Source of the DNA: Bactericera cockerelli
Lineage: Eukaryota > Arthropoda > Insecta > Hemiptera > Triozidae
Assembly: GCA_024516035.1 (NCBI GenBank)
Contig: CM044961.1
Location: forward strand, 37,599,112-37,663,111
Length of the DNA stretch: 64,000 bases
Direction of reading: 5' to 3'
The notes below the pieces were generated by a model. The model was not told the DNA's origin. It searched no databases and saw only the letters and a program-made list of their open reading frames with translations. Both the position numbers and the translations under genes were made by a program. This document shows positions 12,701 to 62,960 of this stretch, one piece after another (positions within the stretch are counted from its first letter, which is position 1; each line of letters opens with the position of its first letter).

Positions 12701-15700
12701 AGGGAGATTGCGGCTAAGATCCAAGGAGTAGAGGCGAGAGTAACAGGAAATAATGTACCCGTCCTCATTTTTGACATCGACGCGTCCATCAAAGGGAATG
12801 AGATTGAGGAATATATCAGGAGGACCACAAAGGAGCACGATACGGTGGTAAGATCTCTTCGCCTGGCGAGAGCGGGAACCCAGATCGCTACTGTCACTAT
12901 GCCGGCTAAAGCAGCGGAGACACTGATTCAGGAAGGGGACATAAAGATAGGGTGGACAAGGTGCCGCGTGAAGCCGAAGATTGACATAGTCCGGTGCTAC
13001 AATTGCTTACATATGGGGCACCACTCTGATATATGTAGGGAAGAGAAAAAGGAGAGAAGGTGTCTGCATTGCGCAGAGCCAGGTCATACGGCTAAAGAAT
13101 GTACTGGAAGAGCTTTTTGTACAGGGTGTAATCACTCTGGTCATAGAAATGACTCAGTCTCATGTCCTCGGTTTAAAAAGATGTTACAGATTAGCAGATC
13201 GGAGGTGGAGAGAGAAAAGGAATTGTCTGATGAAAAAGAAAAAATAACAGAGGATAAAGAAACAGAGGAAATGAATGGGGAAGAAAATATGGAAACTAGT
13301 TGATGATTAAGTTTTTGCAAGTTAATTTAAATAGGTCACCAAGGGCACATGATCTCATGGAAAAAACATGTGAGGAAGAGAAAATTGATATTTTACTAGT
13401 AAGCGAGCCAAATAAAGGGAAAGTGAGTAAAGAGAGAGGGTGGTACACGGACAGTAACTGTGATGCAGTGATTGGAGTGAGGGGGAGGAGTATAAGTGGA
13501 AGTCAAAGCGGTAGCGGGCTAGGGTATACATGGATTGGTGTTAATAATGTAAAGATTTTCAGCGTCTATATTTCACCAAATGTGTCGAGAGCAACTGTTG
13601 TGAAAATTCTGGACGACTTGGGCAAGGAGGTTAGGAGATCCAAGTATAAAGATTTTCTTATAGGTGGGGACTTTAACGCGAAGTCATTCGCCTGGGGATC
13701 TAGAATAGAGGACGACAGAGGAACTCTTTTATCTGAGTGGTTAGGGGAAATGGGCCTGGAGGTTTTAAATGTAGGGGAAACACCAACTTTTATAAGGGGA
13801 AATTCAAATTCAATATTAGATATCACAGTTTGCTCTAGGGGTATTCTAAGAAAAATAAAGAGGTGGAGAGTGTCAGAAGAAGAGAATTTGAGTGATCACC
13901 AAACTATCTTCTTTGAGATGGGTGATATCGTTGAAAATACAGATGACGAAAGCGCTAATAGGGAGAACAGTGTGAAGTGGATGTATGAAGAAGGAAAGAG
14001 AGATATATTGAAAATGCTACTAGAAAGGGAATTTGACGGAAGTGACTGTGAGCCGGTAGAGTGCATAAAAAAACTACAAGAAGCGTGTGAGACCATTTTT
14101 GGGAGAAAAAATAGAAATGGAAATGGGACCAATAGAAAAGGTATGTACTGGTGGAATAAAGAAATTGCGAGCAAAAGGAAAATGTGTCATAGGCAAAGGA
14201 GAATACTAGTGAGAACAAATAAGAGGAATGATGTAATGGAGGCTGAGAAAAGAGTTGTGAGACAAGAGTACTATAGGCTAAAAGAGGAACTAAGAGAGGA
14301 AATTAACAAGTCGAAGAGAGAATCATGGAAGAAGTTGTGTAATGAGCTAAACAAAAATGTATGGGGGAATGGTTATAAAATAGTATGTAATAAGTTTAAA
14401 GTGGGACCAACAGTGAAATTAAATGTAAGACAGAAGAGAGAAATAGCAGAAGAGTTGTTCCCGAGACATGAGAAAGTGACATGGAGAGTAGAGGAAGTGA
14501 GTGAGATGAATATACCTAAGTTTACGATGGAAGAGGTAGGAGAGGCTTTCCTAAACACTCGGAACAAAAAAGCACCCGGACCTGATGGCATTGGGGGAGA
14601 GATTGTAAAGGTATTTTTTGAGGCTGCTCCGGAATACTGTGTAAATATTTTTAACAAACTTTTGGTGGAGGGAAAATTCCCAAAAATCTGGAAAAAAGGA
14701 AAGCTCGCGCTAATAGAAAAGGGAATAAAAGAGGGAAAGATGACCTACAGGCCTATTTGTCTTCTGGACACAATGGGGAAAGTTTATGAGAGATTGATAA
14801 GAGAGAGATTGAATGAGGAAATTAAGATGAAAGGAGATCTGAGCGAAAATCAATATGGCTTTAGAGAGGGGAGGTCAACTGTGGACGCGATGCTTAGTGT
14901 ATTAAATGTAGCAGAGGAAGCAAAAAGGAAAGGAGATTTATTCACTCTGTACAACACTTTAGTTTTGTTTTTCGATATGACTAACGAAAAATGTGTAAAA
15001 TTAGACGAGAATTATTAATCCTAAATAAAAAATTAAAAAACTCGGTTTTAAAAAAAAATCAAGTCATTATTTCACTTGTGAACCACCCTGTATGTAATAT
15101 TTTTGATTAAAAAATTACTCAGGAATCATTTAGAAGTAAAATTATCAAATAAAATTCAGGTCGATCCATTTAAAAATCGAAAGTTGACACCTCAATTTCT
15201 GACTTTTGAACCACCCTGTATAAAAAAAAAATTCATAACTGAAACCGCATAATTAGCACATGTACCCTAGATTATTTTATTTTTCAAAAACTCTTTCAGG
15301 GGTCGAGTAATTTGTGGTGTCCAAGTTTGGTGGGACACCCTGTATAAAGCAATTTTTTTTATATAATTATTGCAGGTTCTAGAGCGAGAGATCCAGGAGC
15401 TGCGCGGGAACGTCAACACTCTGGTTCGTGTGAAGGAAAACACCAGCAAGGAACTGGACGTGTCCAAGCTCACCATCTACGACCTGCAGCAGAAGATAGC
15501 GGCGCTCGAGCAGAAGAAGAACGTCTCCAAGAGCATGAAGTCCTACGAGAGGATCATCGAGCAGATGAAAGCCGACTACGCCAAGCAGGAGAAGTACTAC
15601 CAGAATGTGCAGACCAAAGTACTATCCGAGGTAAGAATAAGACTAAAGTACTATCCGAGGTAAGACTAAGACTAGAGTACTATCCGAGGTAAGACTAAAG

Positions 15701-18700
15701 TACTATCCGAGGTAAGACTAAAGTACTATCCGAGGTAAGACCAAAGTACTATCCGAGGTAAGACTAAAGTACTATCCGAGGTAAGACTAAAGTACTATCC
15801 GAGGTAAGACTAAAGTACTATCCGAGGTAAGAATAAAGTACTATCTGAGGTAAGAATAAGACTAAAGTACTATCCGAGGTAAGACTGAAGTACTATCCGA
15901 GGTAAGACTAGAGTACTATCTGAGGTAAGAATAAGACTAGAGTACTCTCCGAGGTAAGACTAAAGTACTATCCGAGGTAAGACTAAAGTAATATCCGAGG
16001 TAAGAATAAGACTAGAGTACTATCCGAGGTAAGACTAAGACTAGAGTACTATCCGAGGTAAGACTAAAGTACTATCCGAGGTAAGACTAAAATACTATCC
16101 GAGGTAAGACTAAGACTAGAGTACTATCCGAGGTAAGACTAAGACTAGAGTACTATCCGAGGTAAGACTAAAGTACTATCCGAGGTAAGAATAAGACTAG
16201 AGTACTATCTGAGGTAAGAATAAGACTAGAGTACTATCCGAGGTAAGACTAAGACTAGGGTACTATCTGAGGTAAGACTAAAGTACTATCCGAGGTAAGA
16301 ATAAGACTAGAGTACTATCTGAGGTAAGACTAAAGTACTATCCGAGGTAAGACTAAAGTATTATCCGAGGTAAGAATAAGACTTAAGTACTATCCGAGGT
16401 AAGAAAAAGACTAGAGTACTATCTGAGGTAAGAATAAGACTAAAGTACTATTCGAGGTAAGAATAATACTAAAGTACTATCCGAGGTAAGACTAAAGTAC
16501 TATCCGAGGTAAGACTAAGACTAAAGTACTGTCCGATGTAAGAATTTTTTTTTTTAAATAACAATGAGGTTTACCCTTCATTTGCTGAAAACTCACAAAT
16601 CAGCTAACCGAAATGCCAGTATCACGAAGTCTTCTCCGCGAATCAGGAAGTTGTTCTTCCAAATTTAGTAGGTACCTCATATTTCGCCTTCATAAATTTC
16701 TGCATTTGAATGATCACCGATTTGCGTACTATCTTAGATGGGAAAAACCAGTGCCTAAGCAATGACTTAAGAACTCGATTTTGTCTATTAATTTCGCCTA
16801 ACTCTAAGATTTCTTATTTCCACGATGATTTTACCCTATTTATCAAGATTTATTTATTTATGTCACATGATAAATAAATAAATAATCAAATTTCCTCTGT
16901 TCTCTCCCAAAAAGTTAAGTTTAGCTTAGGAGGTAATCCAAAATGTATATTTTCTTGATGTAAATAAATTTGCCACATTTTCAATTCAATTCAATTCAAT
17001 TCCCCCCCAGTTTGACCGTCTCAAGGGCGAGCTGGAGAAGATTCGCACCGAAAAGGACAAGATGGCCCGGGAGATCACCTCCTCCGTGGACTTCATCCGG
17101 ACCCGGCTGCTGGACGACCCCAGCTTCGACCTGTCCTCCCTGAGGGAGCTGGAGGCGGTGGAGGCGAGCGATGAGGAGTGCGGGTTCAGTGTGATGCGGA
17201 CGCTGCAGCAGTTCCTCCGCATGAAGCAATGTGATATTATTGTGAGTGTTTTTGTTTTGTATTTATATGTAATTATAATGCGTTTTCTTTGTGTTATTAT
17301 GTCACAATTTTAGTGGGTAGCGCAGAATGATGATAACGGGCTCGACGTTGCTTAACTTGACGTAACACAAAAATTATACATAAAATTCAAGTAAGTTATC
17401 ATATTTGTGTTAATCACTTTCGTGATATCACAACTACTGAAACTTGCTTTACTAAATCTGCGCTGAATCTGGAACTTGAACCACCAACCTCCAGGTTACA
17501 AGTCCGCCACCTTATTAATCAATTTACTGAGGTAGTAATAATAATAATAATAATAATGCTTTTCTTTGTGTTATTATGTCACAATTTTAGTGGGTAGCGC
17601 AGAATCATAGCACTTTACCACTTTAATTATTTTTTTGCCACTGATTCTGCCTCTGGTCGCTGCTTCACATCATAGCAGCTACTCATTTTTCCTCACCAAG
17701 TATGAGTGGATCCCGAACATCCAAGTACAGAGTAGAAAAAGCCAGGTCACCATGTGTGCAATGCTTAGCGCGCTAACTCACTCGGCCACGGCGACTTCTC
17801 AGTAACGTTAAAAAAAATGTCAAAAAATGCTATTGCATATGCAGTCAAGAATCATTGACTTTTAGACTAACTCACTTGGCCACAGTGACAGTATTTATAA
17901 TTATTTAATGTGTATTATTTCAGTTTTTTTTCACGTTACCAAAAAAACAATTCACGTCTTATTACAGAAAAGTCTGAAAACGTGTCGCACCTCCACGGGT
18001 AGTGGTGGCGGAGGCGGGGGCGGCAGCACGGAGCCCGGCAGCGGGGGGGCGACACGCTGCGCACCTCCACTCTGCCCAACCAAACCGACGCCCCCCCGCC
18101 CCCTGAGGACCCCTCCCTCCCCCTCCCCCTCCCGCCCGTTCCTCCCCCTCCCACACCTCCCCCCAGCATGGGCGGCGACCTGCCCTCTCCCCCCCCGCCC
18201 CCCTCGCCGGCACCCGCCTCGACGGAAAAGTGCGGCGACCGAAGTGGTGGGAAAAATTCTTCGACCGCCGAAAAAAATCCCTCGCGGGACAAAAGTCCGA
18301 GTGGGAAAAGTCCCGCGAGCAGCAAAAGTCCCGCGGCGGAACAGTCGGCGCGCAAGGCGAACAACAACAATTTGGCGGAGTTGAACTCGATTCTGCTCGA
18401 CCGGCTGAAGAAGCGAGAGAGTCAGCTGAAGTCCATGACGCTCGAGTGTCTGAACATGAGCGAGGTGCACTTCGACTCGATGAAAGATGTGATGAACGAC
18501 TTTGTGCGGTACCACTTCGCGGAGAGTCTGAGGAATGTGAGGTGAGAATAAGACTAGAGTACTATCCGAGGAAGTAGTATACTGAGGAATGTGAGGTAAG
18601 AATAACAATAAAGTACTGAGGAATGTGAGGTGAGAATAAGAATAAAATACTGAGGAATGTGAGGTGAGAATAAGAGTAAAGTACTGAGGAATGTGAGGTG

Positions 18701-21700
18701 AGAATAAGAATAAAGTACTGAGGAATGTGAGGTGAGAATAAGAATAAAATACTTAGGAATGTGAGGTGAGAATAAGAGTAAAGTACTGAGGAATGTGAGG
18801 TGAGAATAAGAATAAAGTACTATCCGAGGTAAGAATAAGAATAAAGTACTGAGGAATGTGAGGTGAGTGGGAGACCTAATGACTTATGTAAAAGTTAAAT
18901 GACGACTTCTTTTTATTTCATCTTTCGATCTAAAGAGAAATACAAAATTATTACCTGACAAACAGCAATGAGATTTAAATATCAATTGAAATAATATCAA
19001 CAACAAACAAAAATAAATAAGAGATAAAAAAAAGAAGAAAAATCAAAAAAATGGGAATGGGATCAAGTAGAAAAAGATGTCAGAAAAATAGGATTCACAG
19101 TAGAGGGAGCGCAGGATCGGAGAGCATGGANNNNNNNNNNNNNNNNNNNNNNNNNNNNNNNNNNNNNNNNNNNNNNNNNNNNNNNNNNNNNNNNNNNNNN
19201 NNNNNNNNNNNNNNNNNNNNNNNNNNNNNNTAAGATATTGTTGTGGACACTTCCTGAATTCTTCTTTTCTACCTACAGGTCCAAGATATTTTTTATTAGG
19301 TATTTATTTTGTTAGCGTGTTTTTTCTCTCCTTTTTTTATTGTAAATATATTATTCAAGTTTTAAATAATCCAAACATCAAGTTAGTTCAAAAAATAAAG
19401 AATTAAGATTAATTTTATATAATATCAAGAAACGTGTTTTCAATTAAGTCTCTTAGGTTCTTGTGTTCTCAGGAGGAAACAACAAGATAAACATGAGTTA
19501 ACCCTGTTGATTTGTTTAAAACATGAAAAAAATTTTTGCCAGTCCAGTTGATTCAGAGAATTTTTGACATTTTCATGTCTTTGCTCTGGCACATAACCAA
19601 AATTATGTAACGAAATTAAGTAACGAAATTATGTAACGAAATATTAAATTGACATTTTCATGTCTTTGCTCTGGCACATAACCAAAATTATGTAACGAAA
19701 TTATGTGACGAAATTATGTAACGAAACTTGAATAGTAAAGATGAAAATGTCCCAATGGTTGCAGACTCGTATGTAAGCGTTTTTTTCTAATCTTCGAGAA
19801 CACCTCGCCCGGAGACTGTCACTTCTCATGAAGGGAACAGGCTTCTGGACTTAGGTTTTTTCTCTTCTCTCTTTTTGACATTTTCATGTCTTTGCTCTGG
19901 CACATAACCAAAATTATGTGACGAAATTATGTAACGATATTATGTAACGAAATTATGTAACGATATTATGTAACGAAATTATGTAACGATATTATGTAAC
20001 GAAATATTGAATTGTAAAGGGAGAGAAGAGGGAAAGTGTGTGTCATGCGCACAATGGCGAAGTATTGAATTGTAGAGGGAGAGAAGAGAGAAGGTATGTG
20101 TCATGCGCACAATACGAAATTTGGTCAGTTGGGTTTTGGACTTTGAATAGTAAAGATGAAAATGTCCCAATGGTTGCAGACTCGTATGCAAGCGTTTTTG
20201 ACATTTTCATGTCTTTGCTCTGGCACATAACCAAAATTATGTGACGAAATTATGTAACGATATTTATTATTATTATCTGATCTGGTTGCAGGGTTTTCAG
20301 TGAAACCCTTACAATTAACACTGCGACCTAATTAGATCTATTGTGACCAGTTGATTCTATTCGGTTTTAACGTCCTGATTTGAGATAGTCAGGACGGTTT
20401 TACCCTCCATTCGCTGGGAATCGTACCAGCTACCCAAAGTAACCTCACCCAGCCTGGGTAGGGCCGGAAATGCCAGCCTCAGGTGTTTGGAAGGGACAGA
20501 ATTTTCTTTGAAAAGTTTGCCCCAACCGGGAGTCGAACTCGAGACCTCTGGACTACAGGCAGTAGTCACAACCATTACGCCACGGAGGCTGGTGATTCAG
20601 AGGATAGTGCGCCTATTTCTAAACCTATTAGTCGCGGGTTCGATTCAAGCCCAGCAAAACTTTTTTTGAGATAAATATGCAACAATAGCATAGCTGTAGA
20701 ACGTTTAAAGAGAACGGCAAATGTCTGTAATCCGATCAGGAAGTTGTAGAACGTTTTCCTCTCAAAAATAAAGGGAACGGCCAATGTCTGTAATCTGATC
20801 AGGAAGAACTACATACCCCTAGATTTGACGTTACAGAGTTAGGTATTACAAAACCTAGTATTAGGGTGTAATTAATATACGTTTCTGTGAGAAAAGGAAA
20901 ACAGACGACTAGCAATAACTTGAGTTATAGAATTTGTCTACTAATTTCGCCCTAAATCAAGGGTTATACTTTACCCTATTGCTAATTAACGATGTAGTTC
21001 TGTTAGTTGATGATTAGCCCTCAGCGTAGTTTTTTATAAGAGATATACCTACATATCTTACGTAGGAAAATTGATGTTCAGGAACTGAACTCTCAAAAGT
21101 ACCACATAATTTTCCGTTACTTTTGTTAAATTGTATAATTATACTACTGTGTGAAATAAGTAGTGGGACTACATCGATGGAAACGCACCCTTATATATTT
21201 TGATGTATTTTCTTCTTTAGAGGGTTGGCAACACTGTTTTCAATCTGTAACCATAGCGTGTAGATTAATAAGTGTGGAAACGAGCCCCAGTTTCGTGGAC
21301 ACGCCACATAGCGCGACACCATCGCCTCAGACTACATATTTCTCGTGGGCTGTCTCGGTAGCTTCATAACGTGTTATTAATTCATCACAATGGGATGATA
21401 CGATGGCTCGGTGGATAAGGCGGCACTCTCGACATCCCAGGATTCGCGATTCAGGCGGGACATGAATAGAATTTTTGTATTACGTTGGACTTATTGTTTG
21501 AATAATGGGACATGATAGTCCTAATCGAGCACTATAAACACGACAGTATTACTGTTTTTTTTTTTTTTTAGATGGGAATATCGTTTCCCTTATTTAGATA
21601 AATTAGAAAGTTCAAAACTCTGTTAACCTGAAATATAAATGGTTTATAAAGGAAATTTCAAAAACTTCTGTGTAATATTCCTCAATGAGAAATAAGTCAC

Positions 21701-23120: not shown

Positions 23121-23129
23121 ATGTCATAT

Positions 23130-31999: not shown

Positions 32000-32064
32000 G
32001 ATTTATATCTCTGTCCCTTGTGAGACTCCTGACTCACGAGTCACCACTTATGTTACAATAGGAT
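31945..32064 (+). repeat. Tandem duplication of the ANKRD27 CDS end, 2 copies
   Basis: The 58 bases from ATCTCTGTCCCTTGTGAGAC through the stop codon to AATAGGAT occur again at 32007-32064, in the 3' UTR, with no difference I can see. The period is 62 bp. Confidence 0.95.
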
Positions 32065-43424: not shown

Positions 43425-43460
43425 GTAAAGTTAAACTTAACCAAAGTAAAGTTAAACTTA

Positions 43461-43716
43461 GCCAGCGTCGATGGCATGTTGAATACACCGGTTCCCTTCA
43501 GAACACCGAAGATAAGCGACATCCAGCGAGGTTAAGACTTGGATGGGTGACCATTCAAATTCTAATTCTCGTGACGCTGGCTTTTCCCGGCCCCACTCAG
43601 GCTGGGTGAGGTCAATGTGAGTAGCAGGTTTGTGAGTTTCCTGCGAATGGAGGGTAAAACCCCCGTCGTGATATGACCATGGCAGTTGAAAGCGACGTTA
43701 AACCCCACTTAAAAAA
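43461..43716 (+). mobile_element. Full-length 5S-derived SINE with target duplication
   Basis: The 5S head includes CACCGGTTCCCTTCAGAACA, CCGAAGATAAGCGACATCCA, AAGACTTGGATGGGTGACCA. The body is CAGGCTGGGTGAGGTCAATG, GTAGCAGGTTTGTGAGTTTC, ending GACGTTAAACCCCACTT and an A-run. AAAGTTAAACTTA flanks it on both sides (43448-43460 and 43717-43729). The insertion lies 37 bp into the intron. Confidence 0.9.
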
Positions 43717-44679: not shown

Positions 44680-44870
44680 ATGGCACATCCCGGGCGTCCT
44701 CCCACTCTGAGGGGCCCGAGGTAGAGGGGCGCCGACGAGTCCGGTTCTCCGACGCCGGTGTGTCTGTGCATGAGGTGCCCGGGCGGCCCCGGCCCAAGAA
44801 GTGCTGGCGGAACACCAAGCGGTGTCTGGACTACTTCTGCTGCTGTGGCTGCCTCTTCCCCAGGATATGA
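44680..44870 (+). CDS. Last coding exon, Cys-rich C-terminus
   Basis: The acceptor follows a C-run. In phase with 43254-43424 it reads DGTSRASSHSEGPEVEGRRR, VRFSDAGVSVHEVPGRPRPK and ends KCWRNTKRCLDYFCCCGCLF plus PRI and TGA. Seven Cys in the last 23 residues suggest S-acylation at a membrane or metal binding. The family is not recognised. The last part of this exon is repeated 13 more times downstream. Confidence 0.65.
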
Positions 44871-45955: not shown

Positions 45956-46385
45956 TCAGTGGTCGAGGCGTTGGTCTGGTAATCCAGAGGTCGCGGGTTT
46001 GAAACACAGGCGGGGCACAGCAAATTATCCTTCCATTTTGGAAATTTGACCACATAATAATGTCTTGAGCTTACTGCTGGAATAATGGGACACATTAGTC
46101 CTAATTGCGCAGTATCTATACTTATAAAAGAGAGTTTCACTCACTGACTGACTGACTCACTGATTCATCACTGTTTCTCCGAACTGGTAAGTCCTAGGAA
46201 GCTGAAATTTGGTAAGTAGCTTTGTCTTATAGTCTCAATGTGCAATAAGACGGAATTTTTCGAAATTTCCACTACAACACCTGCCATTGGCGAAAAAGGA
46301 TTTTTTGCTTTCACGGCCATGTCTCGGACCGCAAAGCGGGCGACAGGCCGCTAGTAAATATATAAATAAGGCGATATTATAATTA
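45945..46385 (+). mobile_element. Family D SINE split by a Helitron
   Basis: The head GTCCCGGTAGCTCAGTGGTC begins at about 45945. The body runs to TTGCGCAGTA at 46114. After the 240-bp Helitron it resumes TAAATATATAAATAAGGCGA and ends in TTATTATT. Removing the Helitron restores the family's GCAGTATAAAT text. Confidence 0.85.
46115..46354 (+). mobile_element. Non-autonomous Helitron, 240 bp
   Basis: It starts TCTATACTTATAAAAGAGAG and ends CGACAGGCCGCTAG, with a short hairpin (CCGCAAAGCGGG) before the end. It sits between A and T, the Helitron target. Relatives are at 52513 and 54309. Confidence 0.9.
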
Positions 46386-48445: not shown

Positions 48446-48448
48446 TAA

Positions 48449-52200: not shown

Positions 52201-55200
52201 TACTCGTATAGTATTGAATTGTATCGTATCGTATATAATTTTAATAATAATACGAGTCTTTATTTGACATCAAAATAAGAAATTACAATAAATGTAAGAA
52301 GTGCGTGATTATTGGCAATCTCTGCCATCCAACCCTTGTATTTTTTTTATTTTTTAAAGATGAGTGTTTCACAGCCTTTTTTTATTTCGTAGCCATAAAA
52401 CAGGAGCTACTGTAGACGCTTGTGGTCTGTGTTGTAGCCTGCCCATCCCGTATTGTATTTATCGTATTGCATCGTATTGTATCGTATTGTATTATTATTA
52501 TTTTACACTTTATCTCTATATATAAATGTCAAAGACACTCACTGACCACTGACCACTGACCACTGACTGATCATCGCTCTACAGCCCAAACCGTAAGTCC
52601 TAGGAAGCTGAAATTTGGTAGGTAGCTTTGTCTTATAGTCTAGATGTGCAATAAGACGGGATTTTTCGAAACTCCCACTACAACACCTGCCATTGACGAA
52701 AAAGGATTTTTTGCTTTCACGGCCATGCCTCGGCCCGCAAAGCGGGCGACAGCCCGCTAGTTAGATATAAATGGACATAATGTACAAAACAAATAATTAT
52801 TTTAACAATGAAAAAAATGGAAACAATATGTACAATAAACATGAAAAAGAATAGAAAAATATTTAAAAAGATATCGCCTCTGACAACACAAAGAGGCGTA
52901 AACCACAAATTTTTGAAATCGGTTTTATCGCTTTAATTGATTCTACTTGTGCTACATATATTTTGTTCTCATAAATAGACGTAATCCAATTAGGTATAAT
53001 CCAAAGAAAAGATACAACAAAAATTGAAGTCAGGCGTATCCCTCATTTTCTTTTTTTCAGACAGATCAAATAGGCGTAAATCGATAGTCACAGTTAAATA
53101 ATCAAATTTGGCAACAGAAAAAGTTCGTATGGTCATTCACGGGTACAGGGAAGTGATGATTTTCCTACCGTGAACAGAAAATTTATGCACAAGAAAACTC
53201 ATTTTGGCTCTCGTGTAAAATTTCGAAAATGTTGTTTACGCCTCTTTGTGTTGTCAGAGGCGATATGTCCTAACTAAAGGGCGGGGTTATTGCCTATGGC
53301 AATCTGTTCCACCCAACTCTTGTATTGTATCGTATTGTATATTTTACCTTCTCAAAAGCGTTGTAGGTGAACAGGATAGGCGTGTGGGAGAAGCAGATGT
53401 AGACGATGGGAGACTTGACCTTCTCCTGCAGCGCTTGTGGCGAGCGGCAGTACTGGGAGCTCAGCAGGATGAGGCTGGTCAGGGAGTCTAGCGTGGTTCT
53501 ACAAGCCGTGATGGACGGCTCGGGGAGAGAGCTGAGGATCTGAGAGATGTTCTCGTCCAGAGATTTGTTGAAACACACCTAGGGATTATATTATTATTAT
53601 TATTACTATAGTAAGTTTTATTAGGTAGAACAAAAATATATACAGTAAAATACAATGACATTATAAAGAAAAAACAAAAAGATTGAGCAAAGATACCCAG
53701 CCTGGGTTGGGCCGGAAACTTCTGAACCACACAAGCACTTACATTGTTCTCCACCTGCACAAGGTCTGTCAGTAGTTCCAGCTCCAGGGTCGGACTCTTG
53801 AGGTTCACAATATCTTGCATGGATGATTCCACGGTGTCTGGAAGACCTTCCAGTAGAATGACCGTCACCGTGTCTCCTCCTGAGAATTAAGAAATAGTCA
53901 TTATTATTAAAAAAAAACTCTTTATTAGAAGGACCTAATAATAATAATAACCACCAGGCGAGGTTAATGCTCAAAGCATTTTCTACCACCCAACCCTCAG
54001 AGTCTTATTACTATGAGGTCACAAACTCAAATTAACGAGGAAAAATTAATTCACTGGGTGGGATTCGAACCAACGGATCCTGACGCGCGTTAACCTTGAG
54101 TTGACTATACTTTCTCTATAAAAAAAAAAATACTTTCACCATGTTATTGTAAAGGATAGTAATAATAATTAACACAAACTAGAACAAGGCTGCATCCCAC
54201 GACACAAGTACCATCCTTCATAGGTGTGGCCCTTAGTGTGAGATGACGAGAGCCAAAAGAAACTAGCATAAGTTCAGTTAAAAATATTATGAATTATGTA
54301 AACTGTCATCTTAATATATAAATGTCAAAGTCACTGACTGACTGACTGACTCATCATCGCTCTACAGCCCAAACCGTAATACCTAGCGAGCTGAAATTTG
54401 GTAGGTAGCTTTGTCTTATAGTCTAGATAAGGGATTTTTCGAAATTCCCACTACAACACCTGCCATTGGCGAAAAAGGATTTTTTGCTTTCACGGCCATG
54501 CCTCGGCCCGCAAAGCGGCGACAGCCCGCTAGTTGTTATATATATTTGAACCATTTACTTGTCATGTATTTATTTAAATAGGTAAATAAAATAAATTACC
54601 TTTCTCGAGTAGCTTCATATATATTTGAACCATTTAATTGTCATGTATTAAACATATAAATAAAATAAATTACCTTTCTCAAGTAGCTTCGTCATCTCGA
54701 GCACAACACAGCTCGCCCATATCTCGCCCACCAGAGTGTAGGGGCCCTCTTTCTGCACGCCCTTCAAGCTACGGGCCAGGCCCCGGGCGAAGTCCGCTAT
54801 GGATCCTATCTGCGCGGGCAGGCTCGACACTATAATAATAATAATGTTTTTTTTTATTGTTGAATGATACCTTTCGGTGTTAACAATGTTGTGCTTAAAA
54901 CTAAATTAAAACTAAATTCTTAAGACTATAAAGATAATGATGTTAAGGAAAGAGTTATATGTATAGGTAAGTAAATAATAAGAATAACAAATTAACTAAA
55001 ACTAATCTCTGTATCATAGTAAAGTATGTGAAGAGGGAGAGAATTATTTAAACAAGGTAAGAAACTGATAATGTAGTAGAGTTGTAGAGAGAAGGAGAGA
55101 AAATAGGAGCGAATTGAGAAGAAGAGAAAATAGGAGCGAGAGAATATTAAAGGGCTCACCAGGTCAGCTGGTCATCAAATGAGTAAGGAACCAAGTCCAG

Positions 55201-56201: not shown

Positions 56202-56242
<41 letters not shown>

Positions 56243-59200
56243 GGGGTTTTGTGTACATGTAGTTCAGGACGAGCCAACTTTGAAATAAAGTTGGCTGGAG
56301 ACCATGACCCCATGCTGTAGACAAGCTGGCTACAACAACAGGTCTCTAAATTAGGAGTTTATCATCTCGTACCCTGAAGTAATGTTATGCAACAGTTCCA
56401 GGGTACTGAGATTAGAAAGAGAGGAGGATGTTTAGTGGGTATGGCACATCGTTTTCAGTGCCTAAACCTCACACTGTCCACCAGAGCCAGAGATGGTCCT
56501 GGTGTCCGTCTTGAATTGCAAGAAGATTGACCTCCTCTCTAGAAGAAGAAGAAAAAAAAAAATACCTTGTTGCTCCTTGGTGTGTACAATCACCAGAGGG
56601 GAGGTAGACTATACCTTGTTGCTCCTTGGTGTGTACAATCACCAGAGGGGAGGTAGACTATACCTTGTTGCTCCTTGGTGTGTACAATCACTAGAGGGGA
56701 GGTAGACTATACCTTGTTGCTCCTTGGTGTGTACAATCACCAGAGGGGAGGTAGACTATACCTTGTTGCTCCTTGGTGTGTACAATCACCAGAGGGGAGG
56801 TAGACTATACCTTGTTGCTCCTTGGTGTGTACAATCACCAGGGGGGAGGTAGACTATACCTTGTTGCTCCTTGGTGTGTACAATCACCAGAGGGGAGGTA
56901 GACTATACCTTGTTGCTCTTTGGTGTGTACAATCACCAGAGGGGAGGTAGACTATACCTTGTTGCCCTTGGTGTGTACAATCCCAGGGGGATGTAGACTA
57001 TACCTTGTTGCTCCTTGGTGTGTACAATCACCAGAGGGGAGGTAGACTATACCTTGTTGCTCCTTGGTGTGTACAATCACCAGAGGGGAGGTAGACTATA
57101 CTTGTTGCTCCTTGGTGTGTACAATCACTAGGGGAGGTAGACTATACCTTGTTGCTCCTTGGTGTGTACAATCACTAGAGGGGAGGTAGACATGGCGTTG
57201 CATTCCAGGCTGAGGGTGTCGAGATGGGTGATGAGGTCGCGGGTGGACGCACACTGGACGCAGAGAGAGGGCATGTGGGCGGCGCGTCTGGCTTCACACA
57301 GGACCTCGGCGGAGGACTGCAGACAGAGGAGCACGGGGAGGGAGGGGGCCAGGACGCGCAGGGCGAGGTCCAGGTTTGGAGTCTCTTCTCGTCCTGGCAA
57401 GGGGGAAATAATGATAATAATAATTAATATCGCCTTATTTATACTGCCCCATTAAGACAATTAAAGTCCCATTATTCCAGCAGTAAGCTCAAGACATATT
57501 ATTATGTGGTAAAAATCCCAATTGGGAGGATAACATGTCATGTCCCGGCTGGGTTTCGAACCCACGACCTCTGGAGTCTTTGGATTCACAGAGTGCTGCC
57601 TTTACCACTGAGCTACCGGGACAGACTTGTTTTGTCTGTCCCGGTAGCTATAATTATGTATGTATTGTAATTATGTATGTATTATTTTATTTGTGGTGAA
57701 GCACAAGGCCTCTTCACAATTTTTCTGGGTAGCGCAGCATTACTAAAAGCCTCCTTCACATTTCGAATTATTCTATTACATTAATGTCTTTTTACTCTGG
57801 TAGGTAATGCCGCCACTGGTCGTAACTCATACAAGTAACTACTCATTTTTCCTCACGAGGTATGAGTGGACCCCGAACATCCAAGTAGAGAGCAGAAAAA
57901 TTCCTGCCCCGCTGGGGATCGAACCCAGGTCACCGTGTGTGCAATGCCTAGCGCGCTAACTCACTCTGCCACGGTGACTACTATAATGATTGTAATTATA
58001 TTGTCTTATTTATACAGTCCAGCCTGGATATAAGAGAACTCAAGGAACCGTAATAATATCGTCTTAATAATAATAATAATAAGTATATCACTCTTTTTTT
58101 TAATGATATTTATTTACAGAGGAGACTTAACAATCAGAGTCCTTGCTCCTAAATATCACTCTTTAATGGAAGATAACCACCAGGCGAGGTTAATGCTTAA
58201 CGCATTTTCTACCACCTAAGCCTAAGAGTCTTATTATAATGTCGTCACAAACTTAAATTAATGAGGAACACTTCACGCACTGAGTGGGATTTGAACCAAC
58301 GGATTCCTACAAGGTAGCGCGTTAACCACTTGACTACCAGTGCATAATATTAGTAATTATATCATGTTATTTATACACTCGAACCTAGATATAAGAGAAA
58401 TCAAAGGTTATTACTTCCGAGAATATCTGATATTAGCTATCGGAAGTTTTGTGTTTTTCCTTAGAGATGTAAAATGGACTTGGAAATTGTTCTCTTATAT
58501 GTATACAGGTTGTTGTTGTAGACAACAACAACAACAGCCAACAAAGTTGTCTCGTTCTGAATCACATACTTCTATGTGCAATCAAACATCGTGACAGCTT
58601 GGACTTTTTCTTCATAAGCCATTAGAACCTATGGAAATTGCAAGACAGCCTGGTTTGTTAGGATTGACTGCTTGTAGTCCTCTAACGAGACACTGGTCTT
58701 TTCCCTGTTCAACGTCCACCAGCTAGACACTCTTATATCCAGGTAACGAATATATATCGGCTTATTTATATTGGCCGACAACCCGTACACTAACCAGCAT
58801 GCACCTTGTTGTGCACGCAATGGTGCATGACAACTCACCAGCTTCACAGTGAACACAGCGTCCAATGCATGCACCTTGTTGTGCACACAATGGTGCATGA
58901 CAACTCACCAGCTTCACAGTGAACACAGCGTCCAATGCATGCACCTTGTTATGCACAACTTCGCTCCGGCTGGTGTAAAGACCTGCAAAGCTACAAGTCC
59001 AGAATAGATCCAGCAATACAAGACCTTTGCCCGCTATGCAGGAACCAACACATGATGTGCCTCACCTCTTTGAATGTACGGCAAATCCAACAAGCCTGGA
59101 CCCCACCTCCTTATGGACAGACCCAAGAGCAGCAGCGACATAGAAACTGATAGAATGAAGTTGAATAGCGTTACAACAACACCAACAACAACAACTTACC

Positions 59201-61968
59201 ACTTCACAGTGAACACAGCGTCCAACGCATGCACCTTGTTGTGCACGCAATGGTGCATGACAACTTACCAGCTTCACGTGAACACAGCGTCCAACGCATG
59301 CACCTTGTTGTGCACGCAATGGTGCATGACAACTTACCAGCTTCACAGTGAACACAGCGTCCAATGCATGCACCTTGTTGTAACTTACCAGCTTCACAGT
59401 GAACACATGCGTCCAATGCATGCACCTTGTTGTAACTTACCAGCTTCACAGTGAACACAGCGTCCAACGCATGCACCTTGTTGTGCACGCAATGGTGCAT
59501 GACAACTTACCAGCTTCACAGTGAACACAGCGTCCAAGCATGCACCTTGTTGTAACTTACCAGCTTCACAGTGAACACAGCGTCCAGTGCATGCACCTTG
59601 TTGTAACTTACCAGCTTCACAGTGAACACAGCGTCCAACACATGCACCTTGTTGTGCACGCAATGGTGCATGACAACTTACCAGCTTCACAGTGAACACA
59701 GCGTCCAATGCATGCACCTTGTTGTAACTTACCAGCTTCACAGTGAACACAGCGTCCAACGCATGCACCTTGTTGTAACTTACCAGCTTCACAGTGAACA
59801 CAGCGTCCAATGCTTGCACTTTGTTCTGCACGTAGTGGTGCATGACAACTCATCAGCTGGTGCATGACAACTTATCAGCTGGTGCATGACAACTTATCAG
59901 CTGGTGCATGACAACTTACCAGCTTCACAGTGAACACAGCGTCCAATGCATGCACCTTGTTGTAACTTACCAGCTTCACAGTGAACACAGCGTCCAACGC
60001 ATGCACCTTGTTGTAACTTACCAGCTTCACAGTGAACACAGCGTCCAATGCATGCACTTTGTTCTGCACGTAGTGGTGCATGACAACTCATCAGCTGGTG
60101 CATGACAACTTATCAGCTGGTGCATGACAACTTATCAGCTGGTGCATGACAACTTACCAGCTTCACAGTGAACACAGCGTCCAGTGCATGCACCTTGTTG
60201 TGCACGCAATGGTGCATGACAACTTACCAGCTTCACAGTGAACACAGCGTCCAGTGCATGCACCTTGTTGTGCACGCAATGGTGCATGGCCTGCCGAATC
60301 CCCTGCTCGGAGTTGAAGCTGCTCAGCGGCAGGAAGATAAACAGGCTGTCGCTGTAGCGGGCCAGGAGAGAGTTGATCCGGCGGTCCACATAGTCGTTGT
60401 GGGCGGACGCTTCGAAAGCGAGAATGATGCGGCGGGCAGACCGCTTCAGCAGCCACTTGACGATGTTGAGCCACTTGTGAGACCGGACGGTGGAGTTCAC
60501 TGGAAGTCGAACAGAGAGTCAAATATAGACATTAATTTATCAAATATAACATCAAAGGCCCCACACGTCCATTACGCCCATGCCCCACGTGTGTATCACA
60601 TGGGTGATCCATTTACTGATAAGAGTGATAAGAAATGTGGGACACGTGTGTTTTAGTAACCAAATCAGGCTTAACAGTTCCTTATTCTGGTGGATTTTGA
60701 AAAGGTTCAAACAGTTAGGTTGCACTGAGCGCACGATTAGCTCAGTGGTTAAGCACTCGCTTGCCATGCGGAAGGTCCCGGGTTCGATCCCCCGTGCCGG
60801 CAGAAAATTGTATTCTTAATTTGGTTACAATTGTTTGTAAGGGATACCTTCCGGTGCACTCGTGTTGACCCAGCACCTAAATGGGAAGTATTGTGTCACT
60901 TCTCGCCCATCAGAAGGGAGCCATACTACGGGATGGGCAGGCTACAACACAGACCACAAGCGTCTACAGTAGCTCCTGTTTCATGGCTACGAAATAAAAA
61001 AGGCTGTGAAACACTCATCTTTAAAAAAAAAAAAATTGTCTATCTATTACTAGTGTCTAGCTGGGGGACTATAAACAGGGAGTACATCAGCAGTCTGGCT
61101 GGGGGACTTTAAACAGGGAGTAGACCAGCAGTCTCGCAGGATACTCACAAACTAGCTACTCAAATTAACCTCACCCAGCCTGACTAGGGCCGGAAACATA
61201 ACTCACCCACTACCAGGTAGGTTCTGTTGGAGAGACAGGTGAAGATGGAGTCACAGTGAGGGTTGCGGGTGAGGGAGAGGACTACCTTGGTCTCCTGGGA
61301 CTCCGTCTTGAGAGCTCTGAAACAATGAGAGAAACGATAGTTATTATTTTTTATTCACAAAATATGGATCTGCTCGTAAATAAATGAACTGGTACACCAG
61401 GGGCCTATTACATAAAGAACTTTACACTTCATACTTGACGAGTTCACACTTCAAGATTCAAATTCTGTTTGATAAAGAAACTTTGCGAACACATTTTTAC
61501 TAGTATGAATTGTAAAGTTTTTTATGTAACGAGCCCCTGGTATTATTATTATTATTAATATTATTATTATTATTTGGATCCCTACCTGGATTACCAGATC
61601 CCTACCTGGTTTACCAGACTAGCGCTTTAACCACTTGACTACCAGTGCACAATAGAGGGTGTTGGGGTGATAATTGGTGCTTCTCTTCTAAAACTCCAAC
61701 TAGTCTTTAAAAATCATAAAAAATGCATTGATAAACGCTCCCTAAGAAACTTACTTAAGGGCAACTTACGCTCCCTAAGAAACTTACTTGAGTGCATCGT
61801 GTGTCTCCGTAGTGTCGAAGATACATCTCTTGAGTGGCTGAATGATCCCACTCTCCACATCTCTCTCTATCAGTTTCTTGATGTGCCTCTTGGTCTCCGG
61901 ACTACTCGAGTAGACATTCATGTCGGCCACACACGAGAGCTGAGTAGACCGGATGAATAGATTGAGAC
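49162..61968 (-). CDS. Fatty-acid-synthase-like protein, C-terminal half (gene span; continues off the right side)
   Basis: Exons in order: 61968-61788, 61316-61207, 60499-60228, 57393-57148, 55922-55695, 54829-54674, 53879-53743, 53578-53348, 49275-49162. They resemble animal fatty acid synthase from the end of the enoyl reductase (VESGIIQPLKRCIFDTTETH) through the ketoreductase to the thioesterase. Active-site features are absent. Where the KR should have its glycine-rich nucleotide motif it reads YLVVVNSTVRSHKW. The Tyr-containing KR segment is missing between LQSSAEVL and CEARRAAHMPSL. No ACP with its DSL serine lies between KR and thioesterase. The thioesterase elbow GxSxG is GEIWA, and the expected Asp and His sites read LLEGLPDTV and KVSETSSYFQLL. 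One small exon is missing or unseen between 60228 and 57393, since the phases disagree there (0 against 1). Open frames and good splice sites suggest an expressed pseudo-enzyme and not a dead gene. Confidence 0.8.
49543..49625 (-). mobile_element. 3' part of a 5S-type SINE
   Basis: GGTTTAACGTCGCTTTCAAC, TGCATGGTCATTTCATGACG, GAGGTTTTATCCTCCATTCG on the plus strand is the reverse of the family E end. Within an intron of the FAS-like gene. Confidence 0.65.
49820..50040. repeat. Short local direct repeats in the intron
   Basis: TATGTATGAGTAATTTTGTG followed by TATATACTGTCATATGCAAT and ATAAATAGGCTGTGTAT occurs twice with a 69-bp offset (from about 49915 and 49980). Confidence 0.7.
50340..50705. 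repeat. Interspersed repeat family G, large copy
   Basis: AAACAGGGAGAAGACCAGTG and ACTATAAA-type blocks occur twice. They are followed by TAACAGCTTATAAAGAAAAG and AGTATGTGGTTCAGAACCAG, and it ends TTTTAGCCAAGCTGGCTACA and ACAACAAC. Confidence 0.5.
50725..50815 (-). mobile_element. 5S-type SINE body fragment
   Basis: CACTCCATTCGCTGGAAACT, CACAAAGCAGCTACCTATAT and CACCTCGTCCTGCCTGAGTT match the reverse of the family E body. Confidence 0.6.
50826..50910 (+). mobile_element. tRNA-derived SINE family C, head
   Basis: CCGACCTCAGTAGCTTGATC, GGCGGAATTGTAACCTGGAG, TCAAATTCCGGTTTCAGCGT. The body is cut short. Confidence 0.8.
51362..51562 (-). mobile_element. tRNA-derived SINE, family B, minus strand, full length
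   Basis: The minus strand has TACTGGTAGTCAAGTGGTTA, TAGTCTTGGTAATCCAGGTA, GTTGGTTCGAATCCCACCCA, GAGGGTTAGGTGGTAGAAAA and CACCTGGTGGTTACCTTCCA. Confidence 0.85.
51596..51722 (-). mobile_element. 5S-type SINE body, minus strand
   Basis: GGGTTTAACGTCGTTATCAA, GCATGGTCATATCACGACGG, CACAATAACCTCACCAGCCT and GGGTTGAGCCGGAATGCC match the reverse of the family body. The head is missing. Confidence 0.75.
51723..52512. other. AT-rich intron sequence with repeat pieces
   Basis: Holds the AATCCTGTTTTATAATTCGG block that is also at 47150-47200, and a 3' piece of the family H SINE at about 52355-52445 (minus strand; AGGAGCTACTGTAGACGCTT). No exon seen. Confidence 0.5.
52513..52760 (+). mobile_element. 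Non-autonomous Helitron
   Basis: Starts TCTCTATATATAAATGTCAA and ends GGGCGACAGCCCGCTAG with the CCCGCAAAGCGGGC hairpin. A lies before and T after. It shares GGTAGGTAGCTTTGTCTTAT and GGATTTTTTGCTTTCACGGC with the other two copies. Confidence 0.9.
53348..53578 (-). CDS. FAS-like gene, thioesterase exon
   Basis: The acceptor is ATCCCTAG. Phase 0 at both ends, VCFNKSLDENISQILSSLPE to FTYNAFEK, donor GTAAAA. It corresponds to the helical lid region of the thioesterase. Confidence 0.8.
53743..53879 (-). CDS. FAS-like gene, thioesterase exon
   Basis: Acceptor TAATTCTCAG. It reads GDTVTVILLEGLPDTVESSM and ends LLTDLVQVENN before GTAAGT. In active enzymes the catalytic Asp lies in a LFDGSP-like stretch; here that place is LLEGLP. 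Confidence 0.85.
53948..54090 (-). mobile_element. tRNA-derived SINE, family B, minus strand
   Basis: GTTGGTTCGAATCCCACCCA, GAGGGTTGGGTGGTAGAAAA and ATTAACCTCGCCTGGTGGTT on the minus strand; the 5' end of the head is lost. Confidence 0.75.
54309..54532 (+). mobile_element. Non-autonomous Helitron
   Basis: Starts TCTTAATATATAAATGTCAA and ends GGCGACAGCCCGCTAG. A before, T after. One base is lost in the terminal hairpin compared with 52513-52760. Confidence 0.9.
54536..54690 (-). repeat. Two-copy duplication of an exon end with its 5' splice site
   Basis: The segment reading (plus strand) TATATATTTGAACCATTTA, AAATAAAATAAATTACCTTT, CTC(G/A)AGTAGCTTC occurs at about 54541-54620 and 54621-54690. 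Each copy carries the last 16 bases of the exon and the GTAAT donor; the one at 54674 is used by the open frame. Confidence 0.9.
54674..54829 (-). CDS. FAS-like gene, thioesterase exon with the lost nucleophile elbow
   Basis: Acceptor TTATTATAG. SSLPAQIGSIADFARGLARS, then LKGVQKEGPYTLVGEIWASC, VVLEMTKLLEKG. The context EGPYxLxGxSxGxxVAFEM is typical of the thioesterase nucleophile; here it reads GEIWASCVVLEM, with Ile in place of Ser. Confidence 0.9.
54840..55400. other. Intron sequence, A-rich, no feature recognised
   Basis: Purine-rich repeats GAGAAAATAGGAGCGA occur twice near 55095-55140. The rest is unassigned. Confidence 0.5.
55418..55677. mobile_element. hAT-type MITE next to a splice donor
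   Basis: Starts CAGGCGCGGCCGGTGC and ends ACTGGCCGCGCCTG. The 8-bp CATGAATC is exact on both sides (55410-55417 and 55678-55685). It is the inverse of the 37314-37571 copy. The target duplication lies at intron positions +10 to +17 of the FAS-like gene. Confidence 0.92.
55695..55922 (-). CDS. FAS-like gene, linker and start of thioesterase
   Basis: Acceptor CTCCACAG. SYIRPNVFQDIFPLSLDELV, then HISHLTPPDSPAFRPV, LPLFFVSCLGAAYLGPLL. In fatty acid synthase an ACP lies before this; none is seen. The exon is GC-rich. Ends one base into a Val codon before GTAATA. Confidence 0.8.
   Translation of the reverse strand, partial: NPTFGRTCSKTSSLSLWTSWCTSPISLPPTRRPSGRCSPDPRGAATRPRPCLSSSCPAWARPTSGLCCRTSSTPP
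56202..56245. repeat. G-homopolymer of about 40 bases
   Basis: An uninterrupted run of about 40 G after CAGTGGCGTAGCC, then T and four G. Such length is likely to be unstable or wrongly measured. Confidence 0.95.
56560..57185 (-). repeat. Tandem array of an exon end plus 5' splice site, about 13 copies
   Basis: The 49-bp unit on the minus strand is CTACCTCCCCTCTGGTGATT, GTACACACCAAGGAGCAACA and AG (42 exonic bases), plus GTATAGT. The true exon end is at 57148. Copies differ by a few substitutions (CTAG against CTGG) and two have short deletions. Confidence 0.95.
57148..57393 (-). CDS. FAS-like gene, end of the ketoreductase region
   Basis: Acceptor CCTTGCCAG. REETPNLDLALRVLAPSLPV, LLCLQSSAEVLCEARRAAHM, PSLCVQCAST to VIVHTKEQQ. 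It resembles the KR end (ICExRR..GLPGLAVQ), but the segment with the catalytic Tyr is lacking. Entry phase 1 does not fit exon 60228, so about 65-70 bases of an exon are missing or unseen between them. Confidence 0.75.
57425..57627 (-). mobile_element. tRNA-derived SINE, family D, full length
   Basis: The minus strand begins TGTCCCGGTAGCTCAGTGGT, has GTGGGTTCGAAACCCAGCCG, TCCTCCCAATTGGGATTTTT and ends GCAGTATAAATAAGGCGATA. The acceptor stem is intact. Confidence 0.9.
57693..57980 (-). mobile_element. tRNA-derived SINE, family A, full length
   Basis: The minus strand starts GTCACCGTGGCAGAGTGAGT, TTAGCGCGCTAGGCATTGCA, and ends CTTGTGCTTCACCACAAATA. Near-identical to 8205-8502. Confidence 0.9.
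58158..58343 (-). mobile_element. tRNA-derived SINE, family B
   Basis: The minus strand has GCACTGGTAGTCAAGTGGTT, CCGTTGGTTCAAATCCCACT, TTAGGTGGTAGAAAATGCGT and AACCTCGCCTGGTGGTTATC. Confidence 0.8.
58505..58735. repeat. Interspersed repeat family G
   Basis: GGTTGTTGTTGTAGACAACA, AACATCGTGACAGCTTGGAC, CAGCCTGGTTTGTTAGG and TAACGAGACACTGGTCTTTT match the copies at 5.2 and 50.4 kb. Confidence 0.55.
58795..60290 (-). repeat. Tandem array of an exon end plus 5' splice site, 18 copies
   Basis: On the minus strand each unit holds the exon end GGTGCATGCATTGGACGCTG, TGTTCACTGTGAAGCTG and the donor GTAAGTT. Short units have a period of 51 bp and long ones about 70 bp, with CATGCACCATTGCGTGCACA added. 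A 22-bp subrepeat (CAGCTGGTGCATGACAACTT on plus) occurs in two clusters. A LINE fragment interrupts it at 58953-59197. The true exon end is at 60228. Confidence 0.95.
58953..59197 (+). pseudogene. LINE 3' fragment inserted in the array
   Basis: The plus frame reads KLRSGWCKDLQSYKSRIDPA, IQDLCPLCRNQH. Farther on, in another frame, comes a sequence consistent with the C-terminus of Jockey-like polymerases. It ends with an ACAACAACACC-type tail. Array units stand on both sides. Confidence 0.75.
60228..60499 (-). CDS. FAS-like gene, ketoreductase exon
   Basis: Acceptor GACTTCCAG. VNSTVRSHKWLNIVKWLLKR, SARRIILAFEASAHNDYVDR, then LFIFLPLSSFNSEQGIRQAM and HHCVHNKVHALDAVFTVKL. The layout matches the KR fold (glycine motif, WLxxR, xxILxSR), but the GGxGGxG bases are replaced. 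Its last part is the seed of the array at 58795-60290. Confidence 0.85.
60728..61034 (+). mobile_element. tRNA-Gly-like SINE, family H, full length
   Basis: Head GCGCACGATTAGCTCAGTGG, ACTCGCTTGCCATGCGGAAG, GTCCCGGGTTCGATCCCCCG. The body holds GGTGCACTCGTGTTGACCCA, GGGATGGGCAGGCTACAACA, AAACACTCATCTTT and an A-run. Confidence 0.8.
61136..61200 (-). mobile_element. 5S-type SINE body fragment
   Basis: ATACTCACAAACTAGCTACT, CAAATTAACCTCACCCAGCC match the reverse of the body. It ends next to the FAS-like exon at 61207. Confidence 0.65.
61207..61316 (-). CDS. FAS-like gene, ER-KR linker exon
   Basis: Acceptor ATTGTTTCAG. ALKTESQETKVVLSLTRNPH, CDSIFTCLSNRTYLVV. It corresponds to the end of the enoyl reductase and the first KR strand. 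It joins in phase with both neighbours. Confidence 0.85.
61575..61650 (-). mobile_element. Family B SINE head, minus strand, with a local duplication
   Basis: GCACTGGTAGTCAAGTGGTT, AAAGCGCTAGTCTGGTAAAC on the minus strand. GGTAGGGATC-CTGGTAATCC-type text occurs twice within 30 bp. Confidence 0.7.
61788..61968 (-). CDS. FAS-like gene, enoyl-reductase end exon (first in window)
   Basis: Acceptor TTCTACTCCAG. GLNLFIRSTQLSCVADMNVY, SSSPETKRHIKKLIERDVES, GIIQPLKRCIFDTTETHDAL. It resembles the C-terminal part of the FAS enoyl reductase. Entry phase 1; upstream exons are outside the window. Its first part is repeated nine more times to the right. Confidence 0.85.
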
Positions 61969-62960
61969 CTGGAGTAGAATAGAATAAAATAGAGCGGAAT
62001 TGTCTCAGAAACACGAGAGCTGAGTAGACCGGATGAATAGATTGAGACCTGTAGTAGAATAGAATAAAATAGAGCGGAATTGTCTCAGAAACACGAGAGC
62101 TGAGTAGACCGGATGAATAGATTGAGACCTGTAGTAGAATAGAATAAAATAGAGCGGAATTGTCTCAGAAACACGAGAGCTAAGTAGACCGGATGAATAG
62201 ATTGAGACCTGTAGTAGAATAGAATAAAATAGAGCGGAATTGTCTCAGAAACACGAGAGCTAAGTAGACCGGATGAATAGATTGAGAACTGAAGTAGAAT
62301 AGAATAAAATAGAGCGGAATGGTCTTAGGACTACTCAAGTAGACATTCATGTCGGCCATACACGAGAGCTGAGTAGACCGGATGAATAGATTGAGACCTG
62401 AAGTAGAATAGAATGAAATAATAAAAATAATATCATCTTATTTATACTGCCCGATTAGGACTATCAAGTCCCATTATTCCAGCAGTAAGCCCGAGACATA
62501 TTACTTGTCATGTCCTTCGTCCCTCGAAATAGAACAGAATTGTCTCAGGACTACTCGAGTAGACATTCATTTCGGCCACACACGAGAGCTGAGTAGACCG
62601 GATGAATAGATTGAGACCTGGAGTAGAATACAATAAAATAGAGCGAAATTGTCTCAGGACTACTTGAGTAGACATTCATGTCGGCCAAACACGCGAGCTG
62701 AGTAGACCAGATGAATAGATTGAGACTTGGAGTAGAATAGAATAAAATAGAGCGGAATTGTCTCAGGACTACTCGAGTAGACATTCATGTCGGCCACACA
62801 CGAGAGCTGAGTAGACCGGATGAATAGATTGAGACCTCTAGTAGAATAGAATAAAATAGAGTGGAATGGTCTCAGGACTACTCGAGTAGACATTCATGTC
62901 GGCCACACACGTGAGCTGAGTAGACCGGATGAATAGATTGAGACCTGTAGTAGAATAGAA
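61890..62960 (-). repeat. Tandem array of a 3' splice site plus exon start, 10 copies
   Basis: On the minus strand each unit has ATTCTATTCTACTCCAG (acceptor), then GTCTCAATCTATTCATCCGG, TCTACTCAGCTCTCGTG of the exon. The period is 80 bp for the first five copies and about 109 bp for later ones, which carry more exon (up to GACATGAATGTCTACTCGAG). A family-D SINE piece interrupts at about 62420-62515. Confidence 0.95.
62438..62515 (-). mobile_element. Family D SINE fragment in the array
   Basis: TATTTATACTGCCCGATTAG, TCCCATTATTCCAGCAGTAA, GCCCGAGACATATTA match the reverse of the family D 3' half. Confidence 0.75.

What the first reader, a model, noticed from the sequence alone, without database searches (positions are those of the whole stretch)
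15616..62960. Most tandem arrays in this window are amplified exon boundaries
Nine separate places repeat the edge of a coding exon together with its splice site or stop: 5' splice sites at 15.6, 18.5, 54.6, 56.6-57.1 and 58.8-60.3 kb; 3' splice sites at 61.9-63.0 and probably 42.5/43.2 kb; stop-codon ends at 31.9 and 44.8-45.9 kb. They fall in four transcription units, on both strands, with unrelated unit sequences and periods (23 to 109 bp). Coding exons are a small part of the window, yet only three minisatellites (42.0, 19.6 and 63.8 kb) show no exon link. That is hard to explain by chance. Possible causes are repeated template switching at exon edges, gene conversion with spliced or partly spliced transcripts, or selection that removes arrays everywhere but the first intron bases. 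I know of no named system of this kind.
Basis: partly seen in the sequence, partly recalled or inferred. Interest (0 to 1): 0.95.

Follow-up and report, generated by a model that had tools for sequence, protein, structure and literature searches.

The report
Tandemly repeated exon ends in psyllids
In this psyllid (plant-sap insect) genome the ends of many exons, with their splice sites or stop codons, are repeated in tandem beside the gene, a kind of array so far described from single genes of amphioxus under the name 'mirage'.

Summary
The window is from a psyllid (ANKRD27 exon 91% identical to Diaphorina citri). TRF gives 26 merged arrays; 11 rows at 10 places, 5,690 of 7,108 array bases, belong to an exon end (nine flagged by script, two added by me). 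Random placement gives 0.91 on average, 7 at most in 100,000 trials. Two arrays sit at true stop codons.

In exons picked without regard to arrays, 22 of 192 ends (19 after dropping three unclear rows) carry an array, against 1.6% of intron positions; a further family gave 5 of 32 raw, 3 after dropping AT microsatellites. Near-identical gene copies show one unit where another shows two or more.

The kind has a name: 'mirages' in amphioxus (PMC3087553, passages). Best reading: short end-joining duplications arise mostly around exons; those leaving a working splice site or stop next to the exon survive; some expand. Why exons are favoured is open. New here: an insect, roughly one exon end in ten, stop-codon ends.

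The parts
15376..15630 (+). gene A exon (coiled coil), ends at the first donor of the array
   Evidence: acceptor ttgcag, donor GAG|GTAAGA, open frame in phase with the next exon (by eye)
15611..16543 (+). donor array, units 23 and 29 bp, about 35 copies
17010..17240 (+). gene A next exon, no array
18528..18867 (+). donor array after the gene A exon ending 18541; 34-bp unit, 9 copies; first and last stretches contain pieces of the 15.6 kb unit (TATCCGAG)
31945..32064 (+). two copies of the CDS end and stop of ANKRD27 (58-bp copy, 4 filler bases)
43417..43464 (+). weak duplication over the first donor of gene C
   Evidence: the unit split failed
44815..45957 (+). array of gene C exon end + stop + head of a tRNA-type SINE; units 73-96 bp
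54538..54690 (-). two copies of the donor of gene D exon 6 (74 bp)
   Evidence: unit split by eye
56562..57191 (-). donor array of gene D exon 4 (49 bp, 13 copies)
58797..60288 (-). donor array of gene D exon 3 (51 and 70 bp units, interrupted)
61931..62963 (-). acceptor array of gene D exon 1 (80 and 109 bp units), interrupted

Best explanation
These are mirage-type minisatellites. Step 1 (inferred): in the germ line, breaks in or near exons are repaired by fill-in and end joining, giving a short tandem duplication of roughly 15-150 bp. Step 2 (supported by unit geometry): duplications that leave a complete splice signal or stop codon next to the intact exon do no harm, because the extra copies fall in the intron or 3' UTR; those inside coding sequence or cutting the signal are removed by selection. 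Step 3 (shown as outcome, mechanism inferred): some duplications grow to tens of copies by unequal exchange or conversion and vary between gene copies. Why exon-containing DNA is favoured over plain intron is not shown; breaks tied to transcription, chromatin or recombination at exons are the likeliest cause.
For: Genome-wide and independent of the window: 22 of 192 raw exon ends (19 after dropping L028, L107, L015) carry an array at the end, against 1,853 of 116,788 intron positions in the first unit of another array, P = 8e-13; SNF replicate 5 of 32 raw, 3 after dropping two AT microsatellites. Donor word AGGTRAG three times in a row 19,631 hits against 4,266 for the word read backwards and 3,329 / 4,563 for a scrambled word and its reverse. 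Real stop-codon ends are hit too, so splice sites are not required. Filter: intron part under 25 bases in 10 of 19 donor units and 0 of 7 acceptor units by the raw measure, P = 0.017; with the values I corrected by hand 13 of 19 and 0 of 8, P = 0.001. 6 of 27 periods divisible by three, so no frame preference. Pairs L022/L023, L010/L009, L013/L012: two or more units against one; 34 against 23 and 9 against 2 units in the two copies of gene A. Of ten duplications that I judged simple, eight have no microhomology and up to 7 unmatched bases, as for break-repair duplications (PMC8355091, abstract and introduction); only two of the ten (L010, 31.9 kb) are exon-end ones. Sample arrays with five or more copies: 10 of 22 at exon ends, 7 of 50 elsewhere, P = 0.006.
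Against: Array coverage by base is flat along introns (0.12-0.23), so the excess shows only in where arrays begin. The criterion accepts arrays starting up to 35 bases past the profile match; L071 (acceptor) and L081 hold zero and one exon base. Some junctions do have homology (L022/L023 CGTCT; L075 and L017). The acceptor word TTTCAGG shows little excess, 696 against 569. Median copy number does not differ clearly (3.7 against 2.9, P = 0.14). Polarity from the exon outward is 7 against 4. Arrays flagged inside a profile match: two (L011, 21 bp, in frame; L015, 27 bp, in a match with stop codons that probably runs into intron), too few to test an exon-wide hot zone. No RNA, reads or second species.
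Confidence: 0.5

Rival explanations
1. The splice junction itself is the hot spot: something at the exon-intron border (polymerase pausing, R-loops, spliceosome on nascent RNA) breaks or copies the DNA there, and no exon-wide process is needed.
For: The measured donor and acceptor units span a splice site with breakpoints a few to about 100 bases on either side. The sample, however, looked almost only at splice ends.
Against: Two arrays in the window sit at stop codons without a splice site. The signal-length rule fits a survival filter.
Confidence: 0.22
2. Survival by anchoring: duplications arise evenly, but in introns they are wiped out by large deletions and transposon turnover, while arrays fixed to an exon cannot be deleted from the exon side.
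For: Introns turn over fast: introns of near-identical gene pairs differ by insertions close to the exon (two pairs of three).
Against: Anchoring should leave short remnants, yet arrays with five or more copies are commoner at exon ends (10 of 22 against 7 of 50); the extra copies are ordinary intron and deletable.
Confidence: 0.13
3. Repeated splice sites are kept because they help, for example as spare donors or by holding U1 along AT-rich introns.
For: GT/AG in the copies of 12 arrays mismatches slightly less than other positions, 26 of 550 against 750 of 10,454 (P = 0.03, arrays pooled).
Against: The difference is small and uneven between arrays; stop-codon arrays are not explained; 21 of 27 periods would shift the frame.
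Confidence: 0.06
4. Assembly artefact: repeat stutter or misjoined reads.
For: The assembly holds a 100-base N run (window 19131-19230) and many local double gene copies that may be uncollapsed haplotypes.
Against: Copies differ by point changes, and both copies of gene A carry the same arrays with different numbers. For amphioxus, trace data and re-sequencing are cited in support.
Confidence: 0.04
5. Composition: GC-rich DNA in an AT-rich genome duplicates easily, and exons are simply the GC-rich pieces.
For: Exon ends with arrays have higher exon GC, 0.56 (n = 20) against 0.51 (n = 172), P = 0.02.
Against: GC-rich SINE heads (0.55-0.64) rarely carry arrays: 4 of 52 hits, at two places, both exon-end arrays. 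No array of their own in 50 places against 22 of 224 exon ends gives P = 0.02, but counting the two shared places P = 0.27, so this control is weak.
Confidence: 0.08

Closest known systems
Mirages: minisatellites over intron-exon boundaries in amphioxus Adh3, globins, troponin C, PGBD5 (PMC3087553 and PMC3902484, passages read; Canestro 2002 known only through them)
   Same: Tandem repeats of 10-160 bp that span donor or acceptor boundaries, differ in number between haplotypes, and carry splice signals in many copies
   Different: There reported gene by gene in a chordate; here an insect, about one exon end in ten in the sample, stop-codon ends, units fused with SINE heads. RT-PCR and somatic evidence is reported there, none here
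IFI6 (6-16) minisatellite giving multiple splice donors in man (Turri 1995, seen only as a reference title)
   Same: Tandem copies of a splice donor, by its title
   Different: A single human gene
Small tandem duplications from break repair (PMC8355091, abstract and introduction)
   Same: Short tandem copies made at breaks and sealed by end joining
   Different: Nothing in what I read ties them to exon ends or to long arrays
Intron gain by tandem genomic duplication (PMC4974935, search listing only)
   Same: Tandem duplication of gene sequence with splice signals
   Different: There the duplication makes a new intron; here copies lie within an existing intron or 3' UTR

Membership tests
Mirage minisatellites | Tandem unit spans an exon-intron boundary | tested here: met
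   Window edges, units split into exon and intron parts, sample exons
Mirage minisatellites | Both 5' and 3' splice boundaries can be repeated | tested here: met
   14 donor and 8 acceptor ends of 96 each before manual dropping; 13 and 6 after
Mirage minisatellites | Copy number differs between haplotypes or alleles | tested here: inconclusive
   Differs between near-identical gene copies, but whether these are haplotypes or local duplicates is not settled
Mirage minisatellites | Normal mRNA is still made from the exon-next site | not testable with these tools
   No RNA data of this species
Mirage minisatellites | Somatic instability | not testable with these tools
   Needs PCR or reads from single individuals
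Intron gain by tandem duplication | A new intron interrupts the coding sequence, bounded by the two copies | not tested
   No ortholog intron positions compared; the window copies lie in introns or 3' UTR
Transposon-borne minisatellite | The same unit recurs at many unrelated places | tested here: not met
   In the loci and window held here most edge units hit none or one other locus, while one transposon unit hits 19; edge units that include SINE or AT-rich parts hit 3-8, and the dropped AT row L028 hits 15

The most novel reading that the evidence does not exclude
A germ-line process in this psyllid is directed at exons, by nascent RNA, splicing or exon chromatin, and repeatedly breaks and copies exon ends throughout the genome, so that exon borders rather than transposons or satellites are the main source of its genic minisatellites and a continuing supply of raw material for new introns and exons.
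Probability: 0.2. Interest if true: 0.85.

Novelty: new member of a known kind. Interest (0 to 1): 0.62.

Why it matters
If it holds in the raw reads, a curiosity of a few amphioxus genes becomes a genome-wide feature of an insect, in two distant animal lineages. It would give many natural tests of how the spliceosome picks one of several intact neighbouring sites, supply a possible intermediate stage of intron gain by tandem duplication, and point to exon-focused germ-line breakage. It also warns gene predictors and read mappers for psyllids, which include crop-disease vectors.

Tried and rejected
Base coverage of arrays against distance from the exon edge: flat, not informative, replaced by the first-unit test. 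Acceptor word search: little excess. Polarity of divergence from the exon: not significant. Two-copy junction scan: 51 hits, most inside larger arrays; ten were judged simple by eye; an unmatched single base may also be a point mutation. Copy-number comparison from hand-picked lists (14 of 28 against 4 of 30; L029 and rows that I took for transposon, AT-rich or unlabelled exon ends were left out) is replaced by the unpicked one. Transposon target duplication as source: not supported for L009/L010, where the insertion lacks the second copy (by eye). Gene A: no clear family. Of three pattern loci read on C1, two follow an exon-like frame and one (L039) does not. Papers: ten searches; no psyllid or insect case seen in the rows listed; rows below the listing and papers outside the library are not covered.

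Full report
What the window is. It is G000:C7:37,599,112-37,663,111 of a 565 Mb genome in 1,032 contigs. The ANKRD27 exon is 91% identical to Diaphorina citri and 88% to Cacopsylla, so the organism is a psyllid; Bactericera cockerelli (567 Mb in PMC12203342, passages and one section read) fits in size, but that is inference. Genes: A, a coiled-coil gene (+); B, ANKRD27 (+); C, a short conserved psyllid protein (+); D, a fatty-acid-synthase-like gene (-).

Check of the observation. TRF merged to 26 arrays (period 9 or more, score 50 or more), 7,108 bases; 11 rows at 10 places, 5,690 bases, belong to an exon end (nine rows flagged by the script, 18580 and 58797 added by me). Three further places are 55.9 (acceptor), 61.7 and 43.4 kb (donors). 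Random placement of units puts 0.91 arrays on one of 30 edges on average and never more than 7 in 100,000 trials. The stop-codon cases are real CDS ends: the ANKRD27 C-terminus lines up with Diaphorina, and the hand-spliced gene C product matches a 118-aa Diaphorina protein over 100%.

Genome-wide test. Myosin-head exons were fetched by family search without regard to arrays (the 30 best of 77 matches became loci), then chaperonin and tRNA-synthetase exons: 96 exon matches (41, 46 and 9). Fourteen donor and eight acceptor ends of 96 each carry an array that starts in or within 35 bases of the exon match and runs into the intron; three rows (L028, L107, L015) are AT-rich or unclear, leaving 19 of 192. 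Of intron positions in the same loci 1,853 of 116,788 (1.6%) lie in the first unit of another array; some of those arrays look like unlabelled exon ends themselves (L016), so the null is conservative (P = 8e-13; the exon set contains near-identical gene pairs). A stricter version with scored splice sites gives 10 of 77 donors and 5 of 80 acceptors. Sixteen SNF-family exons fetched later give 5 of 32 raw, 3 after dropping two AT microsatellites. Three spaced copies of AGGTRAG occur 19,631 times against 4,266 for the reversed word and 3,329 and 4,563 for a scrambled word and its reverse; these count overlapping matches, so large arrays weigh heavily. TTTCAGG gives 696 against 569, so the acceptor side is not supported by that test. 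Of three pattern loci on C1 that I read, two follow a 75-base exon-like frame with its own acceptor; they are near-identical copies of one another; the third does not.

Anatomy. The repeated units join intron bases to a piece of exon. By the raw measure the intron part is 0 to 93 bases in 19 donor units and 25 to 76 in 7 acceptor units; under 25 in 10 of 19 and 0 of 7, P = 0.017. With five donor values corrected by hand to the regular unit and one acceptor read by eye it is 13 of 19 and 0 of 8, P = 0.001. This is what is expected if the copy next to the exon must keep a working signal (a donor needs about five bases, an acceptor its pyrimidine tract; general knowledge). Six of 27 periods are divisible by three. 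GT/AG is intact in most copies of 12 arrays (26 mismatches of 550 positions). Two units include the head of a tRNA-type SINE (window 44.8 kb; L071 6.7 kb). The 18.5 kb array contains pieces of the 15.6 kb unit, so the two arrays have exchanged sequence.

Dynamics. Near-identical copies of the same genes elsewhere show one unit where the other shows two or more: L023/L022, L009/L010, L012/L013. The second copy of gene A, 285 kb away and inverted, has 23 against 34 and 2 against 9 units. Of ten duplications judged simple, eight show no microhomology and up to 7 unmatched bases, which fits end joining of breaks with overhangs (PMC8355091), though only two of the ten are exon-end ones and L022/L023 shows a CGTCT homology. 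Arrays with five or more copies are commoner at exon ends (10 of 22 against 7 of 50, P = 0.006), while median copy number does not differ clearly (3.7 against 2.9, P = 0.14).

What it is. [quoted passage not shown] PMC3902484 adds PGBD5 and troponin C. The psyllid arrays meet the structural features; splicing and somatic instability could not be tested. New here, as far as the listed papers go, are the insect host, the density, stop-codon ends, SINE-fused units and the signal-length rule.

How it probably works. Formation around exons by break repair (inferred), survival only where a signal or stop stays next to the exon (supported), expansion (outcome shown). GC content alone is a less likely cause, but the SINE control is small. 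Whether the hot spot is the exon, the junction, or only better survival is open; stop-codon ends favour the first.

Noticed in passing
G000:C7:37328108-37334270 (L002-L008) against window 15.0-19.1 kb: Second, inverted copy of gene A about 285 kb away, two flank stretches 93 and 96% identical, own array sizes and an extra SINE-like insertion; many other genes also come in two near copies on one contig, as in uncollapsed haplotypes or local duplications
   Followed up: partly
window 18528-18867: The second donor array of gene A holds units of the first one 3 kb upstream, a sign of exchange between arrays of one gene
   Followed up: partly
L013 near position 1512 (minus-oriented): The acceptor next to the exon reads CAAG|AG instead of CAG|G while upstream copies keep CAG, so a distal acceptor may be in use
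   Followed up: no
L011 1-561: A 77-bp unit repeated 7 times that seems to hold a donor and an acceptor with an exon piece between
   Followed up: no
G000:C9:26352049-26352836 and C12:14125826-14127214: Arrays with weak similarity to the 18.5 kb donor array, period about 124 on C9
   Followed up: no
window 11582-15018: Two long open frames of a non-LTR retrotransposon (the second with endonuclease and reverse transcriptase domains); TRF lists no array inside
   Followed up: no
window 19564-20120 and 63224-63253: AAATTATGTAACG minisatellite of what looks like a transposon family, also found in other loci
   Followed up: partly
window 19131-19230: Run of 100 N, probably a scaffold gap
   Followed up: no
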